Source: Pelosinus fermentans DSM 17108 (GTDB lineage Bacteria > Bacillota > Negativicutes > DSM-13327). From it: a stretch of DNA of 64,000 bases. The translations under genes were made by a program, and so were the position numbers. The notes beneath the pieces were generated by a model. That model searched no databases. It had not been told where the DNA came from and worked only from the letters and a program-made list of their open reading frames with translations. Where the stretch lies: NCBI RefSeq assembly GCF_000271485.2, contig NZ_AKVN02000001.1, positions 3,497,501 through 3,561,500 on the forward strand, written 5' to 3'. Below, piece after piece: positions 24,410-32,874 of the stretch. The stretch's first letter is position 1, and each line of letters begins with the position of its first letter.

Positions 24410-25441
24410 TTATGGCTTTATTTCTTTTACCGTTAAAGAATCGGCAATCTTTTGCAGTTCTTCTGCTGATTTTTTGCCTTCAATTGTAATATCATATTTG
24501 TCAACCTTCACTGTGATACTGTTCATACTTTCTCCTGCCTTTTTCATAAAAGGTTCCATTGCTGCACTTTCTACAGTATCCTGGGCTGTGCCTTGTTTTA
24601 TCTTCGCTTTACTCTTTATCTGATTATCATCTGACATTTTTTGAGTAATGATAATTTCATCATTACTCCCTATATGATAGACTTGCTGCACAACTCTGCG
24701 GACATCATCTATCTTTATAGACTGTGCTTCCAGGTTCGGGATTACCACCATTGTATCAATTTTAGACTGATTCTGCTCTTCTGCTTTAGGAGAATCAACT
24801 ATCTTCTCATCCATGAATAATCGTCTTTGCCTGGCTATCTCTTGAGGTGCATCTTGCTGAAGAGCAGCTATCTGATTCGATTTGTCCTCTTTGGGCGGTG
24901 CTTCTGTTCCTTGGAATATTTCTGCAATTACCTTCGGCAGCGAATCAGCAGCCTTTTTGTCTGTCATATTAGAGTTGGAAGATTCCTCCTTCTGGTCTGC
25001 TTCCACCTGTTTGGAAGTACTTTCCTCCCTCGGTTGTGCAATATCCAAATTAGCAGCTTGATCCGTAATCGCTGCGAATTGCTGCTTTTCTATGCTATCG
25101 TCTGTTGTCTGTGCACTATTAGAATTAGGTGTCTGCGGCAATAAGAATTGTAGAAAACCAGCTATAAATACTGCAGCTACAGTACCAATAACACCACCAT
25201 ACAGCCAATTTTTGCGCCGTTTTATCTTTTGTGCCCCTAATTCTGCCGACAACGTATCGGCCATTTCACCAATTAATCCTCTTGGCAGCTCCTCTTGCTG
25301 ATAAGACTGTTTAACAGCAGCAGCTAGCTTTATCAATTCCTTCACTTCCTCATCCTGTAGAGCAGACTGTTTACCATCATGTAACTGATCTAAACCTTGT
25401 GAAAGTTCTTCTTCCTGATCATATTCTTTATCTTTTAACAT
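24410..25441 (-). CDS. Probable membrane anti-sigma factor
   Basis: 343 aa from the ATG at 25441, which has AGGAGGTG six bases upstream; the GTG start at 25474 has no RBS. Cytoplasmic acidic/helical N-terminus (1-75), basic stop KIKRRK, one membrane helix (about 80-101) and a long extracytoplasmic region rich in Gln, Ser and Glu with a structured end (NSITVKVDKYDITIEGKKSA). No HCC zinc motif is present, so it is not a ZAS-type anti-sigma by sequence. Its position directly after an ECF sigma gene gives the assignment. Confidence 0.75.
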   Translation of the reverse strand: MLKDKEYDQEEELSQGLDQLHDGKQSALQDEEVKELIKLAAAVKQSYQQEELPRGLIGEMADTLSAELGAQKIKRRKNWLYGGVIGTVAAVFIAGFLQFLLPQTPNSNSAQTTDDSIEKQQFAAITDQAANLDIAQPREESTSKQVEADQKEESSNSNMTDKKAADSLPKVIAEIFQGTEAPPKEDKSNQIAALQQDAPQEIARQRRLFMDEKIVDSPKAEEQNQSKIDTMVVIPNLEAQSIKIDDVRRVVQQVYHIGSNDEIIITQKMSDDNQIKSKAKIKQGTAQDTVESAAMEPFMKKAGESMNSITVKVDKYDITIEGKKSAEELQKIADSLTVKEIKP

Positions 25442-25454
25442 CCGCTCCACCTCC

Positions 25455-26012
25455 TCATTGTAGTATGCCGACACGTAAACACATTTTTCGTAAATTTTTC
25501 AAAGCTCGCTGCTGAAGCATCTTAATTGCTGACTCCGTCTTATTCATCTGCATGGCAGCATCATGAATGGATAATCCTAAAATAATTCGTAATTTTATCG
25601 CCTGACGCTGCTCCTCTGGCAAACTTTCAACTAAATTGACAATCTGCTCTTGTCCTTCCATACGCAAAATATATTCTTCAGGATTCTCCCTGCTATCAAT
25701 AATGGCTTCCTGAAATTCAGTAAGGTTAACAATCTGAGGTGCTCGCCCATTCTTACGCCAAAAATCAGTCACTGAATTTATGGCAATTCTCGCCAGATAG
25801 CTTTTAAATGGTACATCAAGGATTTTATATCGAGGTAATGAGCGAAATGCCTTCATAAACGTTTCCTGGGTCAAGTCCCTTGCATCATCCTCATTACCGG
25901 TCTTACTATATATAAGTCTATAGACCGGCTGCCAATAATGTAAAATCAATGTATTTAGGGCTTCCCGATCTCCATCTTTTGCTTTTGTAATTAATCTGTT
26001 TTCATCGGTCAC
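25455..26012 (-). CDS. ECF-family RNA polymerase sigma factor
   Basis: 185 aa with sigma region 2 (LILHYWQPVYRLIYSKTGNE; DARDLTQETFMKAFRSLPRY) and region 4 (SLPEEQRQAIKLRIILGLSI; DAAMQMNKTESAIKMLQQRA). Start GTG at 26012. The stop lies 13 bases before the anti-sigma ATG, whose RBS sits within this gap. A copy of the shared promoter motif lies 46 bases upstream, so autoregulation is likely. Confidence 0.95.
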   Translation of the reverse strand: MTDENRLITKAKDGDREALNTLILHYWQPVYRLIYSKTGNEDDARDLTQETFMKAFRSLPRYKILDVPFKSYLARIAINSVTDFWRKNGRAPQIVNLTEFQEAIIDSRENPEEYILRMEGQEQIVNLVESLPEEQRQAIKLRIILGLSIHDAAMQMNKTESAIKMLQQRALKNLRKMCLRVGILQ

Positions 26013-26084: not shown

Positions 26085-26201
26085 GCCATCTTTTAATACT
26101 ACATTTCCCCAATCCTACTTATCGTATAAAAAACAGCTGCATTAAAAGAAAAGACATCATCTCTACTACCATATACTCCAAATTCTATTCAATCCCTGCA
26201 C

Positions 26202-26575
26202 ACCCTTTTGTCATTGCATACGGACTGAAGGAATTGGGATTGCTTCGCTATGCTCGCAACGGCCATGAAATAAATCATAGGAGTGTCAGAAAAGACATCC
26301 GATACTTTTTTAAGGAGCTTTTTTGATAATGACAAACAGAGCAAATAGAACGATTTAACCGCAGAGACGCAGAGGGCGCTGAGGAAATTTTTAACCCTAT
26401 CTATCTTTTCTCTGTGTTCTCTGCGTCTCTGCGGTTCGATTATTTTTTTCCACGCATTTTCTATACCCTTTTTAAAGGGCTTTTCTTGATAATGACAAAG
26501 AGAAAAGAAATCTAACCACAAAGACGCAAAGGACACAAAGGGTTTTATTTTTTGTGCACTCCTTTGTGGTTCATA
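26202..26575. repeat. Cluster of palindromic intergenic repeats
   Basis: Three elements fill this non-coding region. (1) CCCTTTTGTCATTGC (from 26203), the same word as the repeat at 61798. (2) A perfect 18-bp inverted repeat, AACCGCAGAGACGCAGAG at 26357-26374 with its complement at 26419-26436. (3) A related pair AACCACAAAG (26514-26523) / CTTTGTGGTT (26562-26571). Elements 2 and 3 are each preceded by TTGATAATGACAAA, so the unit is tandemly repeated. These belong to widespread families of bacterial interspersed palindromes. Confidence 0.85.
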
Positions 26576-26690: not shown

Positions 26691-27611
26691 TCATTTAAAA
26701 TCGATATTCTGAATGCTGTATTCTGCTATGATTTTTTTTACCTGTTCCATTTTTTCTGCATCAGGTGTGCTGAAGCTTTCCCATCCCTCACGATCTAAGG
26801 CATTCATCTTACTATGCCCAAGCGAATGATAAGGAAGAAGCTCTACACCAAGAATCCTGGTATTTTCCTGAAGAAATTGGCACATTTGTTCAATATTCTT
26901 TCGATCATCATTCACCCCGCTGATTAAAGGTACACGAATGATAACCTCGTGATGTTTCTGAGAGATTCTAAGGACATTCTCAAGGATTTTCCGATTACTA
27001 ACGCCAGTCAGCCTTTTATGAACTTCTTCATCCATATGTTTAATGTCTATAAATACAGTATCTAATTCTTTAATACTATCTTCTGCATCTTTCCACTCAA
27101 AATATCCGCTGGTTTCAACCGCAGTATCAATTGCAAGCCTTTTACAAGCTAGAATCAGTTCTCTCAAAAACTCACTTTGAGCAAATGGCTCTCCTCCAGA
27201 AAAGGTAACTCCCCCTTTCGATTCCCGATAGAAAATGCTGTCTCGCTTAAGGATCTTGATGACTTCCTCTACTGTCATTAATGATCCGATCATCTTCTTT
27301 GCGCCATTGGGGCAGACTTCACAGCAATCACCACAACAGCAGCATTTCTCTCTGGCAAAAGAAAGAGGAATGCCCCCATCCATTGGAATTGCCTGATGAT
27401 TACAAGCCAAGGAACATTGTGCACATCCTGTACATCGATCCCGAAAGTATAAGATTTCAGGATTGATATTCCAGGATTCAGGATTAGCACACCATTTGCA
27501 TCGTAAAGGACATCCTTTTAGAAAAACAGTACTTCGAATTCCATCACCATCGTGAACTGACCATCGCTGAATTTGAAATACACTGCCAGCAATCTGATCA
27601 CTATCCTTCAT
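26691..27611 (-). CDS. Glycyl-radical enzyme activating protein (radical SAM)
   Basis: 306 aa. The radical-SAM cluster motif is FLKGCPLRCKWCANPES (CxxxCxxC), preceded by VHDGDGIRSTVF. An inserted dicluster ferredoxin domain has CTGCAQCSLAC and CCCCGDCCEVCPNGA. The GGE motif is GVTFSGGEPFAQSEF. It installs the glycyl radical on the enzyme encoded just upstream (9-base gap) by reducing S-adenosylmethionine. The two extra clusters are typical of activases for PFL-like enzymes other than PFL itself. Confidence 0.95.
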   Translation of the reverse strand: MKDSDQIAGSVFQIQRWSVHDGDGIRSTVFLKGCPLRCKWCANPESWNINPEILYFRDRCTGCAQCSLACNHQAIPMDGGIPLSFAREKCCCCGDCCEVCPNGAKKMIGSLMTVEEVIKILKRDSIFYRESKGGVTFSGGEPFAQSEFLRELILACKRLAIDTAVETSGYFEWKDAEDSIKELDTVFIDIKHMDEEVHKRLTGVSNRKILENVLRISQKHHEVIIRVPLISGVNDDRKNIEQMCQFLQENTRILGVELLPYHSLGHSKMNALDREGWESFSTPDAEKMEQVKKIIAEYSIQNIDFK

Positions 27612-27620
27612 AGGATCACG

Positions 27621-29990
27621 CTATAGACTTTCATAGGTTGTTCTTTCGATAATTGCATCTTGCGCTTCCCTGGAAAGATTAACAAATTGTGTACTATAAC
27701 CTGCCACCCTAACCAGCAAATCTTTATAATCATTTGGCTGTTCTTGTGCTTTTCGTAATATTTCCGTGGAAATAACGTTAAATTGAACATGAAATGCACC
27801 CAGAGAAAAATAAGCGCGAATGATAGAAGCAAGGTTCTTTTTGTTCCTCTGCGTTTTTAACAGATCTGGCGAAAATTTAACATTCAGCAGAGTACCTCCG
27901 GAATGTACATCATGATTGATTTTAGCAGCAGACCGCATCGCAGCCGTTGGACTGGTAATATCCGTGCCGGCATGCGGCGATACCCCTTCTGTTAAAGGAG
28001 TCATGGATTTCCTGCCATCAGGGGTTGCACCAATAATACTTCCTGCGGGGATGTAATTGGAAATCCCCATGAATGCAGAGTTAAATGGCGATCCAAAATA
28101 ATCCTTATAGGATTTAATTTCTTTATTATAAAAATCAGTAATTTCTACAGCAATACTGTCAACTTCATCTTCATCATTACCATACTTAGGACAAGCCAGT
28201 ACGTCTTTTCTCATCTCTTCATACCCCTTCCAGTTGACAGCCAGTGCTTTACCCAACTCTTCTAAGGTATATTTCTTTTCTTCAAAAATCAACTTTTTGA
28301 TAACGATCAGAGAATTAGCAGCATCAGCCACTCCGATTCCAGTAATGACTGGACCAACATTATATTTGGCTCCCCCTTTACTCAAATCAACACCTTTATC
28401 CATACAACCATCTACGAGCATAGAAAGATAGGGGCGAGGCACCATTTCTGCGTGTATTTGCTGGGCGGTTACCGTTCCGATGACAGAATGCTTAATCAAA
28501 TGAGAAAGCTGCCGCAAAAAAGCCTCTTTAACCTCATCATAACTCTTAAACGCAGCAATATCTTTTTCCAGAAGTCCCATCACTTTGCCGGTGATCCGGC
28601 TTTTTCCGCTGTTTAGGGCATATTCAACAGCAGCAGCTAAATTTAGATTAACTGCTGAGGTCCATTCGCCAACTTTTCTAAAATGAGGTACTACGCAGCC
28701 GCAATTACTCCAGTCCCGTGCATCCTCCGGCGATAATCCTGCAGCCAAGAGCATCTGGGAACCAACCCGATCATTGTGAACTGCCGGAAATCCAGTTCCG
28801 ACACTAATAAGATCACATACCGCCAATAAAAATTCATCAGGACTGTCCGGATGAATGCGCACACTAAGTCCAGGCTGGTGGGTTTTCACATTTTCCGTAG
28901 CTTTTAAGCACATATACGAAAGTTCGTTGGTTGCATCTTTTCCATCTCTCGTTCTTCCGCCAATGGTTAAATTTTGAAACGAATTGTAGCCTGCAAAAAA
29001 TTGAGCCGTATTGCTTGAAATTGCCCAGACCCATTCAGAAAGTTTCAACCAAAGGGATTCGATTAATTCTTGTGCCTGCGCTTCATTAATAATCCCTGCT
29101 TTTACGTCATGAGTAAAAAAAGGATACATATATTGATCAAATCTGCCCAAATTGAGAGCTAATGAATTCTCTGACAGTATAGAACCTAGCTGTGTAAACC
29201 AAACCATTTGAATTGCTTCATGGAAGGTCTCAGGAGGATACTGCGGAACTTTTCTGCAGATCCGTGCCACTTCCAAAAGTTCGTTTTTCCGTTTGGAATC
29301 CCTCTCCTCTTCTGCCAATTCCAATGCGTTATCGGAATAGCGGTGAGCAAAAGTAATAATACCGTCACAAACTAAGACAGCAGCCTTGTAAAAATCAATT
29401 TTTTCCAGTGCCTCTTTGGTGGTAGGCTCTAATTCTTGTATACAATTTATTGCATGCCTCTTTAGCTCCTCAAAACCTTTTTTGAAAATAATATCTTGAT
29501 AGTCCGCAGTAATTTCACCAACTGCACTTCTCCACTTAGAATCATTATCGATAACACCTGTATCAATTAAAAGTTTGGCTGTTTCGTCGTTAATTCGTAA
29601 TAGGAATGTTTCTTCCAGTGATTTGCCCCGCCAGTAAGGAAAGATCTCCCTTCGAAGGATCTCTTTGTCTCCTTCGTTAATCTGATATTGATCCTGGCTC
29701 CGAGTACTAAAAGAATCCATTTCCTGCTCAACCCATTTCCAGGAATATTCCGGGCAGACAATTCCTGATCTTTGAAATTCGCCAATTGATCCTATAATGA
29801 GTTCATTATCAAAAATAGTGATTGGAATACTGCTGCATACAGCATGAAATGCTTTTGCTCTTCGAATAATCACCGATTGCCCCTCTGTTTCCTTGTGGGA
29901 TTGAGTAAAAGCAACCGCCCGATGAATACTGATCGAAGGTTTAGAATGAATATAGGATTGTTTAAACTTTTCAATTCTGTGACTGGACAT
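27621..29990 (-). CDS. Glycyl radical enzyme of unassigned function (PFL2/decarboxylase-like)
   Basis: 789 aa from the ATG at 29990 (RBS AGGAGG; the longer ORF to 30050 overlaps gntR). Glycyl-radical motif LLVRVAGYSTQFVNLS near the C-terminus; thiyl cysteine in DARDWSNCGCVVPHF. The residue two after the Cys is Val, not the Glu used by glycerol/diol dehydratases, choline lyase and related C-x-E eliminases, and the motif is not the CC pair of PFL. So a dehydratase or PFL role is unlikely from this motif; arylacetate-decarboxylase-like or novel chemistry is open. Clustered only with an activase and a GntR regulator. Confidence 0.88.
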   Translation of the reverse strand: MSSHRIEKFKQSYIHSKPSISIHRAVAFTQSHKETEGQSVIIRRAKAFHAVCSSIPITIFDNELIIGSIGEFQRSGIVCPEYSWKWVEQEMDSFSTRSQDQYQINEGDKEILRREIFPYWRGKSLEETFLLRINDETAKLLIDTGVIDNDSKWRSAVGEITADYQDIIFKKGFEELKRHAINCIQELEPTTKEALEKIDFYKAAVLVCDGIITFAHRYSDNALELAEEERDSKRKNELLEVARICRKVPQYPPETFHEAIQMVWFTQLGSILSENSLALNLGRFDQYMYPFFTHDVKAGIINEAQAQELIESLWLKLSEWVWAISSNTAQFFAGYNSFQNLTIGGRTRDGKDATNELSYMCLKATENVKTHQPGLSVRIHPDSPDEFLLAVCDLISVGTGFPAVHNDRVGSQMLLAAGLSPEDARDWSNCGCVVPHFRKVGEWTSAVNLNLAAAVEYALNSGKSRITGKVMGLLEKDIAAFKSYDEVKEAFLRQLSHLIKHSVIGTVTAQQIHAEMVPRPYLSMLVDGCMDKGVDLSKGGAKYNVGPVITGIGVADAANSLIVIKKLIFEEKKYTLEELGKALAVNWKGYEEMRKDVLACPKYGNDEDEVDSIAVEITDFYNKEIKSYKDYFGSPFNSAFMGISNYIPAGSIIGATPDGRKSMTPLTEGVSPHAGTDITSPTAAMRSAAKINHDVHSGGTLLNVKFSPDLLKTQRNKKNLASIIRAYFSLGAFHVQFNVISTEILRKAQEQPNDYKDLLVRVAGYSTQFVNLSREAQDAIIERTTYESL

Positions 29991-30015: not shown

Positions 30016-30675
30016 TTAGGATAGAAACTCCGATAAACGCTCACTGGCATCAGCCATATGCTTCTTTAGTATTTTCTTAGCTAATTTAGCATCCTTGTTC
30101 TTACAAGCATTAAGTAAATCCCAATGCTGTTTTTGAGATGTGAGCTGATAATTCATTGATACAAGATACAAGCGCATATAGCGCTCAACATTGTTATGCA
30201 TGACTTGAATTAGTTTCAGTAAGCGGGGCCGTCTTGCCTGCCGATATAAAATTTCATGAAACTGTTTATTTAACTCGCCCCATTGACTGCTATTCCTCTC
30301 ATTCTCTAGCTGCTTTAAAACTATCGCTGCTTCTTCTAAGTCAATTGTGGTCAACTGAGGAACCGATAACTCTAATGCACCGATTTCAAGAAATTGACGA
30401 ATATCAAATATTTCTCTTGCTTCCTCTGCGCTCAGTTCACTCACAATAGCCCCTCTGTTAGGATAGAATTTTACTAAATCCTCCGCTTCCAAATTTTTTA
30501 ATGCTTCTCGCAGGGCACTCATGCTTACATTGAACTGCAGAGCTAATTCTTCTTGTTTTAACTGTATTCCCCCCTGCAGATCACCATTTAAAATTCTTTC
30601 ACGAAGAGCTTCTGTAATAGCAGTAGGTATACTGCGGTGTGAGATTGTATTCGTTTTATAATTATTATTTTTCAT
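30016..30675 (-). CDS. GntR-family regulator (FadR/FCD subfamily)
   Basis: About 219 aa from the ATG at 30675. Winged helix: ALRERILNGDLQGGIQLKQE...VSMSALREALKNLEAEDLV; C-terminal FCD ligand domain with EIFDIRQFLEIGALEL and the metal-ligand-like FHEILYRQA and HWDLLNACKNKD histidines. The frame stays open to 30750 but that stretch has no RBS; the RBS at 30675 is also weak, so the start is uncertain. It ends 25 bases before the glycyl radical enzyme and probably regulates the operon through the palindrome at 30764-30796. Confidence 0.9.
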   Translation of the reverse strand: MKNNNYKTNTISHRSIPTAITEALRERILNGDLQGGIQLKQEELALQFNVSMSALREALKNLEAEDLVKFYPNRGAIVSELSAEEAREIFDIRQFLEIGALELSVPQLTTIDLEEAAIVLKQLENERNSSQWGELNKQFHEILYRQARRPRLLKLIQVMHNNVERYMRLYLVSMNYQLTSQKQHWDLLNACKNKDAKLAKKILKKHMADASERLSEFLS

Positions 30676-30763
30676 AGCATTATTATAACATGTAACAAAT
30701 TTAATTTCGATTTTCGAAAATCTTTTCTTTATTATACGCTTCCCTGCCAATACAGTAAATAAT

Positions 30764-30906: not shown

Positions 30907-32874
30907 TTATATGGAGAACTTTCTTATTTCTTGTTGCAATTCTCCTGCCATGTTAGCTAATGCATGACTGGAAGAAGCGATTTCCTGCATGGATGCGGAC
31001 TGTTCTTCTGTCGCTGCTGAGATGCTTTGTGTTTCGCCGGAAGTATTTTTCATAATACTTTCAATATCCTGTACAGCAGTAACAATTCTTTGACTGCCAG
31101 TCTTCATTTGTCCGATGGAATCGGTTATCTGATATACTTGACTGGCTACCTGACCAATAAGCAATTCAATCTGTTTAAAAGCTGCACCTGCAGCGCTTAC
31201 AACTTCATTGCCAATCTCAACTTCTCTTGTACCATCCTTCATTGTTACTACAGCTTCATCTGTATCTGCTTGAATTTCATTAATCATATCCGCAATTTGT
31301 TTAGCCGCCTGCTGGGATTGTTCTGCTAATTTCCGCACTTCTTCTGCTACAACAGCAAATCCGCGTCCTTGTTCACCTGCACGTGCCGCCTCAATAGCCG
31401 CATTTAAGGCCAGCAAGTTGGTTTGCCCTGCAATTCCTGAAATGGTATCTACAATTTGTCCAATTTCTTTTGATCGTTCCCCTAACTTGGCTACGACTCC
31501 TGCAGATCCTGAAATTGTCTTTTCAATAATATTCATTTGATTTACAGCATTGAAAACAGCCTTACTTCCCTGACCTGCAGCCGCTGCGGCCTCTTCTGAA
31601 GTCAAATTAACGGTTGCAGCATTTGTGACAACAGACTGTATACTAGCCGACATATCCTCTACAGCCGCAGAAGTTCCATTGATTGCTTGCAGCTGCAATT
31701 CTGCCCCCTGTGCTACCTCCGTAATTGAAGCAGCCACTTGAGTAGATGCATGGGCAGATTGTTCCGCGCTGGCTGTAAGTTCTTCTGATGAAGCAGCTAC
31801 ATGTTCTGCTGTTTGAGCGATCGCCCTAATTAGATTACGCAGATTTTCTGCCATAGTAGAAAAATCTGCAGCAAGTTGGCCAATCTCATCATTTGTCTGA
31901 ATCGTAAGGTTTTGTTCCGAAAGATCTCCTCCAGCCATACGTTGTGCAGATTGAGATAAGATTGCAACATTTTTGGTAATTCCGCTCGACAATCTCCAAG
32001 AAGCAGTCGCTGACAATAAGATGCCAAGCAAAGCAGTTAGTCCAAATTGATATCCTAAAGCCGTGACCTGACCATATACATCTTTTACGTCAACGGTGAT
32101 CCCCATTGTCCAGCCAGTAGCAGGAATCTTGGTATAAATCATTAACTTCTCTGCTCCGTTTGCCTCATAGGTTTGCATACCTTTATCCTGGGCCAGCATT
32201 TCTTTTGCAAATTTTTGCAATACAGGATCTTCATGAATGTTCTTTGAAACTTGGACAGCATCCGGATGAGCTAAAATAATCCCCTGCTGATCAATAATGG
32301 TGCCATACCCTTTTCCATTTACCTTAACGTCTTTAATCTTTTCACTCAGCAAATCTAGGGCTATATCAATGCCAACAACACCGCGAAAATTTCCTGCCTC
32401 ACTTTTTAATGGTACCCCTGCGGACACAATATATTTTTTGGTAAATGCATCAACATATGCATCCGTAAAGACGAGTTTATTTTTTTCTTTTGTCTGCTGA
32501 TACCACCCACGTTTACGGGGATCATACCCTTCAGGCAGTGTCGTTCCTGAACCATCAATCATTTTACCATCTTCTAATCCGGCATATAGATCCAGTAAAC
32601 TAGGATCTGCTTTGTAGTTTTGTACAAAAGAAACCGGGATTTCCCTATCACCTAACACAACTCGAATATTCTCACTTGTTGTCACTGCGGTTTGCGCCTT
32701 CGCCAATAACCAGCCGTCTAATTGAGTTGAATAGGTATTGGCAACTGAGAACATTTCATTCTTAATATTTTCCTCTACCTGACTTTTCGCATAAAAATAC
32801 CCCATCGTCGTAGCTACTAATAAGACCAGACTCGTAATCGCCATCATCATTAAAAATTTCATTTTTAATTTCAT
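30907..32874 (-). CDS. Methyl-accepting chemotaxis protein with dCache sensor
   Basis: 655 aa. N-terminal membrane helix (about 8-28), periplasmic dCache domain (about 35-275; [31 protein letters not shown]), second helix (about 278-300), HAMP, then the MCP signalling domain with the hairpin tip [20 protein letters not shown] followed by [20 protein letters not shown]. It passes ligand binding to CheA/CheW. An amine or amino acid ligand is typical of dCache but not provable here. Its mRNA leader contains a c-di-GMP-I riboswitch, so receptor amount is tied to the motility/sessility signal. Confidence 0.96.

What the first reader, a model, noticed from the sequence alone, without database searches (positions are those of the whole stretch)
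27621..29990. Glycyl radical enzyme with a Cys-Val-Val active-site motif
The thiyl cysteine lies in NCGCVVPHF. The Glu two residues after the Cys, general base or acid in C-x-E eliminases (glycerol and propanediol dehydratase, choline lyase, isethionate lyase), is replaced by Val, and the PFL Cys-Cys is absent. The operon holds only regulator, enzyme and activase, with no microcompartment or acyl-CoA genes, so the reaction may be new or a decarboxylation.
Basis: partly seen in the sequence, partly recalled or inferred. Interest (0 to 1): 0.65.

Follow-up and report, generated by a model that had tools for sequence, protein, structure and literature searches.

The report
Glycyl radical enzyme lacking catalytic glutamate
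This is a real, widely shared and unstudied family of oxygen-sensitive radical enzymes whose active site lacks the glutamate its relatives need, so it very probably performs a reaction, on an amino-acid-like compound, that nobody has yet assigned.

Summary
Window 27621-29990 (minus strand) encodes a 789-aa glycyl radical enzyme (GRE) with thiyl Cys432 in NCGCVVPHF and Val434 where GRE eliminases have Glu. It is not a lone oddity: 74 distinct homologues (52-100% identical) share the motif, while 71 other GREs in the loci held are at most 41.9% identical; 69 of them carry Glu there and none carries Val. dN/dS is about 0.05-0.08 within Pelosinus. The enzyme passes only a broad subfamily model and fails every function-specific one. 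Its fold is nearest choline lyase (Z 56.9); the clade groups with choline lyase and a group close to N-methyl-4-hydroxyproline dehydratases. The decarboxylase guess is weak, because HPAD and IAD also carry Glu at Cys+2. The usual unit is regulator, GRE and activase, but 17 of 70 loci add an M20 (carboxypeptidase-G2-like) hydrolase, and smaller subsets a YjiG/YjiH membrane pair, pyruvate:ferredoxin oxidoreductase, RidA, N-acylamino-acid racemase or D-aminoacylase. Best reading: an amino-acid-derived substrate cleaved by radical elimination without the CXE glutamate, giving a 2-imino/enamine acid at pyruvate level. The family claim is well supported; the reaction is inferred (about 0.4).

The parts
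27621..29990 (-). Glycyl radical enzyme, 789 aa, CXV family
   Evidence: PF02901 756 bits, PF01228 114 bits; one of 74 distinct CGCVVPH homologues at 52-100% identity; AlphaFold2 mean pLDDT 94.2
28695..28697 (-). Codon of thiyl Cys432
   Evidence: aligned with the catalytic Cys of 71 of 71 other GREs; codon place computed from the ATG at 29990
28689..28691 (-). Codon of Val434, in place of the CXE Glu
   Evidence: Val 74 of 74 in family, Glu 69 of 71 and Ser 2 of 71 outside
27699..27701 (-). Codon of Gly764, glycyl radical site (RVAGYS)
   Evidence: Gly 74 of 74 in family, 70 of 71 outside
29514..29531 (-). Codons 154-159 (Arg154 to Glu159) of the first active-site loop
   Evidence: S151, K152, W153, R154 and E159 each 74 of 74; S151 and W153 0 of 71 outside; E159 lies where CutC has Asp216 and HypD His160
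26691..27611 (-). Radical-SAM GRE activase, 306 aa, with ferredoxin-like insert
   Evidence: TIGR02494 358 bits, above its cut-off of 174; CX3CX2C motif GCPLRCKWC in the ORF
30016..30675 (-). GntR/FCD transcriptional regulator, 219 aa from the ATG at 30675
   Evidence: FCD 80 bits, GntR 51 bits; 25 bases before the GRE start
30682..30759 (-). Promoter-like sites before the regulator (consensus match only)
   Evidence: two 10-of-12 sites ending at 30731 and 30682; 11 sites found against 13.2 expected in the region, so weak

Best explanation
A new functional family of glycyl radical enzymes. Shown: an intact, conserved GRE with its own activase and regulator; thiyl Cys432 and glycyl Gly764 kept; CXE Glu replaced by Val in the whole clade; several substrate-facing positions rebuilt (CutC Tyr208 to Ser151, Asp216 to Glu159, Tyr506 to Asn448, plus invariant Lys152, Trp153, Arg154). 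Inferred: the activase makes a radical on Gly764, Cys432 becomes a thiyl radical and takes a hydrogen from a small carboxylate-bearing, amino-acid-derived substrate (free, or N-acylated/peptide-linked and first freed by the M20 hydrolase). The carbon radical then loses a neighbouring group. With no hydroxyl-binding Glu at 434, any acid-base help would come from Glu159 or from the substrate's own amine. The product would be a 2-imino/enamine acid or the matching 2-oxo acid, which RidA hydrolyses and pyruvate:ferredoxin oxidoreductase burns where these genes are present.
For: Family: (support 1.0). Selection: dN 0.015 and dS 0.217 against P. fermentans JBW45, dN 0.020 and dS 0.436 against P. propionicus. 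Model 94.2 pLDDT; best structural match CutC Z 56.9, rmsd 1.2 A over 788 residues. Context, 70 loci: activase 69, GntR 28, XRE-cupin 30, M20 17, YjiH 12, YjiG 12, PFOR 7, RidA 5, N-acylamino-acid-racemase-like 4, AbgT 2, D-aminoacylase-like 2. M20 lies near the GRE in three arrangements. Of 100 relatives, genomes with the GRE have a >=49% identical M20 in 12 of 21, genomes without it in 4 of 79 (counted by hand). An M20 paralogue in one GRE-bearing genome sits with D-serine ammonia-lyase and RidA. Elsewhere the GRE lies after threonine ammonia-lyase and an aminotransferase, or after diaminopropionate ammonia-lyase and aspartate kinase, or near a PatB C-S lyase and an AGCS amino-acid carrier; the ammonia-lyases and the C-S lyase are enamine-forming types (recalled).
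Against: No substrate is shown. Most loci (53 of 70), including Pelosinus, have no M20 near the GRE, and Pelosinus has no close M20 anywhere, so the hydrolase cannot be an obligatory partner. PFOR and RidA are seen only in a Sporomusa-like subset. Neighbours upstream in some genomes may be chance insertions. The nearest CXE relatives (the N-methylhydroxyproline dehydratase group) also carry Glu at 159, and CutC an Asp, so Glu159 is not a new replacement base. No coordinates were available, so which residues line the pocket rests on alignment alone.
Confidence: 0.4

Rival explanations
1. A new carboxylate decarboxylase, for example of an arylacetate or amino-acid-derived acid.
For: Stand-alone regulator-GRE-activase operons resemble decarboxylase operons (recalled); phenylacetate decarboxylase is implied to have Gln, not Glu, at Cys+2, and an arylacetate decarboxylase lacks HPAD residues (passages).
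Against: HPAD and IAD keep Glu at Cys+2. HPAD/IAD model scores are far under cut-off. Arylacetate decarboxylase 7e7l and HPAD rank below the eliminases, at Z 46.0 and 45.2 against 56.9.
Confidence: 0.15
2. An ordinary eliminase (choline/diol/hydroxyproline type) that merely lost the Glu and keeps the parental reaction by other means.
For: Closest fold and sequence are CutC and diol dehydratases; the tree joins CutC with weak support 0.65.
Against: E436Q in HypD and E470Q in IslA abolish activity (PMC7077986 and PMC8473560, passages). CutC's Tyr208, Asp216, Tyr506 and Glu491 are all changed. No aldehyde dehydrogenase or shell genes were recognised among the neighbours looked at.
Confidence: 0.15
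3. A radical addition or reverse-addition enzyme (fumarate adducts, for example release of fumarate and a thiol from a succinyl thioether), which needs no acid-base Glu.
For: Such chemistry would need no CXE Glu (inference); a Diacid_rec chemoreceptor is near in 5 of 70 loci and a CoA-transferase III in 2 of 70.
Against: No small accessory subunits recognised nearby; the fumarate Arg of BSS (Arg508, Cys493+15) and MASS (Arg492, Cys477+15) has no Arg at Cys432+15 here (Val447); fold match is lower, Z 43.5-40.6.
Confidence: 0.08
4. A decaying or inactive GRE whose Glu loss is a sign of lost function.
For: Loss of a residue that is essential in relatives.
Against: dN/dS about 0.05-0.08, complete invariance of the new motif, activase near it in 69 of 70 loci.
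Confidence: 0.03

Closest known systems
Choline trimethylamine-lyase CutC
   Same: Best structural match (5fau Z 56.9, rmsd 1.2 A, 37% identity over 788 residues), best model score (757 bits), conserved Phe395 equivalent (Phe338)
   Different: CXE Glu491 to Val434, Tyr208 to Ser151, Asp216 to Glu159, Tyr506 to Asn448; 757 bits against a cut-off of 1050; no cut/microcompartment genes recognised beside it
N-methyl-cis-4-hydroxyproline dehydratases (PDB 8iof, 8id1)
   Same: 35-39% identity, Z 53.6 and 52.1; their close relative L107 groups with this family and CutC (support 0.92) and shares W-x-x-C-G-C, Lys152 and Glu159
   Different: they read CGCVET, with the CXE Glu kept, against CGCVVP here
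trans-4-Hydroxy-L-proline dehydratase HypD
   Same: GRE acting on an amino acid; 603 bits; fold Z 52.8
   Different: cut-off is 1100; His160, Asp339, Tyr450 and the essential Glu436 are all replaced
Arylacetate decarboxylases (HPAD, IAD, 7e7l)
   Same: GRE plus activase; whole-length fold match
   Different: HPAD/IAD carry Glu at Cys+2; 382 and 457 bits against cut-offs of 1150 and 1100; Z 45-46

Membership tests
Glycyl radical enzymes (PFL-like superfamily) | PFL-like domain plus C-terminal glycyl radical domain with RVxGY and a barrel Cys | tested here: met
   PF02901 756 bits and PF01228 114 bits; Gly764 and Cys432; fold
Glycyl radical enzymes (PFL-like superfamily) | cognate radical-SAM activase | tested here: met
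   TIGR02494 above cut-off; activase near in 69 of 70 loci
GRE eliminases (CXE class) | CXE motif in the Cys loop | tested here: not met
   C432-V433-V434; Val 74 of 74 in family against Glu 69 of 71 outside
PFL2-3 subfamily (TIGR01774) | score over 678.2 bits | tested here: met
   748.2 bits; a broad subfamily with no single reaction
Choline trimethylamine-lyase CutC | TIGR04394 score over 1050 | tested here: not met
   756.7 bits; control CutC L102 scores 1540
Choline trimethylamine-lyase CutC | Glu491, Tyr208, Asp216, Tyr506 | tested here: not met
   Val, Ser, Glu, Asn at those columns
Hydroxyproline dehydratase HypD | NF043068 score over 1100; Glu436 and His160 | tested here: not met
   603.1 bits, control L001 1478 bits; Val434 and Glu159
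N-methyl-4-hydroxyproline dehydratases | membership of the 8iof/8id1 clade with CGCVE | tested here: not met
   family is a separate clade with support 1.0 from L107 and its group; Val434; no curated model of them among the hits
Pyruvate formate-lyase | adjacent Cys-Cys pair and TIGR01255 over 994 bits | tested here: not met
   Gly431-Cys432; 161.5 bits
HPAD / IAD decarboxylases | NF033715 or NF033718 over cut-off and Glu at Cys+2 | tested here: not met
   382.3 and 457.4 bits; Val434
X-succinate synthases | Arg at Cys+15 binding fumarate, accessory subunits | tested here: inconclusive
   Val447 at Cys+15 by offset; no XSS sequence was aligned; no small subunit recognised in the operon
Any GRE family with this reaction | substrate turnover by the activated enzyme | not testable with these tools
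   needs anaerobic biochemistry

The most novel reading that the evidence does not exclude
The family is the radical counterpart of the PLP enamine-forming lyases. It cleaves a group from the beta carbon of an amino acid, perhaps while the amine is still acylated and so closed to PLP enzymes, giving (N-acyl-)dehydroalanine or 2-iminopropionate. The M20 hydrolase, RidA and pyruvate:ferredoxin oxidoreductase then take this to acetyl-CoA. It would do so without the Cys-loop Glu that eliminases rely on, using Glu159 or the substrate's own nitrogen.
Probability: 0.2. Interest if true: 0.75.

Novelty: new variant of a known kind. Interest (0 to 1): 0.52.

Why it matters
New GRE functions have repeatedly exposed unsuspected anaerobic pathways. 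This clade breaks the CXE rule used to recognise radical eliminases, is spread over Negativicutes, amino-acid-fermenting clostridia and Synergistetes, and comes as a tidy enzyme-activase pair that is directly expressible. It makes the question 'can a GRE eliminate without the Cys-loop glutamate?' testable, and its hydrolase/racemase/RidA neighbours give a concrete substrate shortlist.

Tried and rejected
Rejected: a chance substitution (74-member clade); a PFL or ketobutyrate-formate-lyase (161 bits against 994, no Cys-Cys); a frameshifted or wrongly started ORF (dN/dS and ribosome-binding site). An upstream ATG at 30050 was judged not the start, because the Shine-Dalgarno lies before 29990 and homologues start there.

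Led nowhere: literature searches listed no paper on this family in the held library of open-licence papers, which lacks most subscription journals. I saw search listings, starts of abstracts, passages of PMC7077986, PMC8473560, PMC12358834 and PMC9248008, and passages plus one section of PMC11528403. The structure papers for 8iof/8id1 were not seen; their substrate is taken from the PDB titles. No atomic coordinates of the model were available, so distances were not measured. Promoter-like sites are no more frequent than in shuffles. The HutG-like gene beside two Acidaminobacter copies, and hydantoin/allantoin-type genes near one, were not conserved elsewhere.

Rows dropped: one search left out alignments shorter than 700 residues (for example the split copies in L020/L101 and the partial copies L022/L104) and any ORF containing X. 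The tree used 16 of the family and 28 other sequences. Alignment A1 used 54 family and 22 other sequences. Matches that were not fetched were not checked for the motif.

Full report
What is there. The window belongs to a Pelosinus-like genome (the same gene is 96% identical in P. fermentans JBW45; the window's genome has 5.03 Mb in 2 contigs). On the minus strand lie a GntR/FCD regulator (30016-30675), a 789-aa GRE (27621-29990) and a 306-aa radical-SAM activase (26691-27611). The GRE has a clear ribosome-binding site before ATG 29990 and starts 25 bases after the regulator; a hairpin with T-run follows the activase (AAAAGTGCCTTCAGTTCAATACTGTAGGCACTTTT, read by eye). A dCache chemoreceptor lies upstream (30907-32874). 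The genome holds two other PFL-like proteins, one of them a hydroxyproline dehydratase (L001, 1478 bits).

Observation. The Cys loop is ARDWSNCGCVVPHFRK and the Gly loop RVAGYS. In published eliminases the CXE glutamate is called conserved, and its Gln variant is inactive in HypD (E436Q) and IslA (E470Q) (passages of PMC7077986 and PMC8473560). Here that residue is Val434.

A family, not an oddity. Hits at E <= 1e-215: 51 of 345 genomes in the order of Acidaminobacter, 7 of 180 in the class of a Synergistaceae MAG, 5 of 398 in a phylum draw (the centres were chosen because they carry the family). Named hosts include Pelosinus, Sporomusa, Lucifera, Anaerospora, Anaerovirgula, Acidaminobacter, Peptoclostridium and Tepidibacter. 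PMC11528403 (section 8) states that 40-50% identity is below the threshold that separates most functionally distinct GREs; the structural matches, which include characterised GREs, are 40% identical or less. Purifying selection is strong: dN/dS 0.07, 0.05 and 0.08 against L004, L005 and L016.

Place among GREs. NCBIfam: CutC 757 bits (cut-off 1050), PFL2-3 subfamily 748 (678, the only one passed), HpsG 651 (1000), HypD 603 (1100), PRK09983 584 (1109), IAD 457 (1100), HPAD 382 (1150), PFL 162 (994). PDB sequence search: CutC 735 bits, glycerol dehydratase 613, 8id1 606. Model-based: CutC Z 56.9, propanediol dehydratase 55.5, glycerol dehydratase 55.0, 8iof 53.6, HypD 52.8, 8id1 52.1, arylacetate decarboxylase 46.0, HPAD 45.2, MASS 43.5, BSS 42.9, PFL 39.6. 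In the tree the family is monophyletic (1.0), joins CutC (0.65, weak), and both join the group of L107 (0.92), which is close to 8iof, titled N-methyl-cis-4-hydroxy-D-proline dehydratase. So its neighbours act on amines and amino acids.

Active site, by alignment only. Family against others (74 and 71 sequences): Val434 (74; 0), Ser151 (74; 0), Trp153 (74; 0), Arg154 (74; 3), Lys152 (74; 4), Glu159 (74; 4, L107 among the four), Asn327 (74; 0), Asn429 (74; 0), Arg438 (74; 0), Cys430 (74; 3), Asn448 (64 Asn and 10 Ser; CutC and HypD have Tyr). Phe338, the cation-pi Phe of HypD, is kept in 74 of 74. IslA's sulfonate-binding Arg189 lies 279 residues before its Cys, which falls at 153 here, next to Arg154; this is an offset argument, not a measured distance. 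I infer an anion-binding site at Arg154/Lys152 and no hydroxyl-binding Glu.

Genomic context. 70 loci of the family (13 of them have a flank under 5 kb): activase 69; GntR regulator 28; XRE-cupin regulator 30; neither 12. M20 hydrolase 17, YjiH 12, YjiG 12, PFOR 7, HipO-like 6, RidA 5, Diacid_rec chemoreceptor 5, N-acylamino-acid-racemase-like 4, AbgT, D-aminoacylase-like and CoA-transferase III 2 each. The M20 is carboxypeptidase-G2-like (142 bits to 1cg2; NCBIfam 253 bits, under a cut-off of 349); PFOR and RidA pass their cut-offs; the racemase-like protein matches N-acylamino acid racemase 2zc8 at 292 bits and passes the o-succinylbenzoate synthase model. The M20 lies after the activase, divergent from the regulator, or after an XRE regulator in different lineages, which speaks for a functional link. 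Pelosinus has no close M20, so the link is optional. An M20 paralogue of a GRE-bearing genome sits beside D-serine ammonia-lyase (700 bits, cut-off 246), a D-aminoacylase-like protein (named by eye; its best model is an amidohydrolase subfamily under cut-off) and RidA. In other genomes the GRE follows threonine ammonia-lyase and an aminotransferase, or diaminopropionate ammonia-lyase and aspartate kinase, or lies with a PatB C-S lyase and an AGCS amino-acid carrier (the aminotransferase is named by eye). These point to amino acids and enamine/2-oxo-acid products, but each such context is rare.

Mechanism proposed. Activase makes a radical on Gly764; Cys432 becomes thiyl; hydrogen is taken from the substrate carbon; the beta group leaves; the radical is returned. 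Shown: the parts and their conservation. Inferred: substrate class, leaving group, Glu159 as acid-base residue, product fate.

Verdict. Observation confirmed; reading as a new reaction likely; decarboxylation weakly supported; a characterised family is not a fit on any tested defining feature apart from superfamily and broad subfamily.

Noticed in passing
L109:1498-3822 (minus): A GRE homologue whose radical-site glycine is replaced by Thr (RVATYSAY) and whose Cys loop reads GCNSP: probably one of the threonyl radical enzymes of PMC11528403.
   Followed up: no
L032:9950-12283: A GRE from an Aminicenantes MAG with GCVSP, Ser instead of the CXE Glu: another CXE-less type, outside this family in the tree.
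   Followed up: no
L020 8100-10545 and L101: The family GRE of Negativicutes UBA1444 (G040) is split into two frames; possibly an assembly error or a real break. Its operon carries racemase-like, M20 and D-aminoacylase-like genes upstream.
   Followed up: partly
L012:13571-18818: Tepidibacter MAG: a 4-hydroxyphenylacetate decarboxylase (1708 bits) with its own activase lies directly downstream of the CXV GRE.
   Followed up: partly
L011, L012, L206, L207, L209 (activase): Some family activases are only about 250-267 aa, against about 300 in most, so they probably lack the ferredoxin-like insert.
   Followed up: no
window 26189-26570: ORF and non-coding DNA after the activase read like a dispersed intergenic repeat (GAACCACAAAGG); judged by eye only.
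   Followed up: no
window 24410-26012: ECF sigma factor-like and putative anti-sigma gene pair downstream of the operon; named by eye from the ORF list.
   Followed up: no
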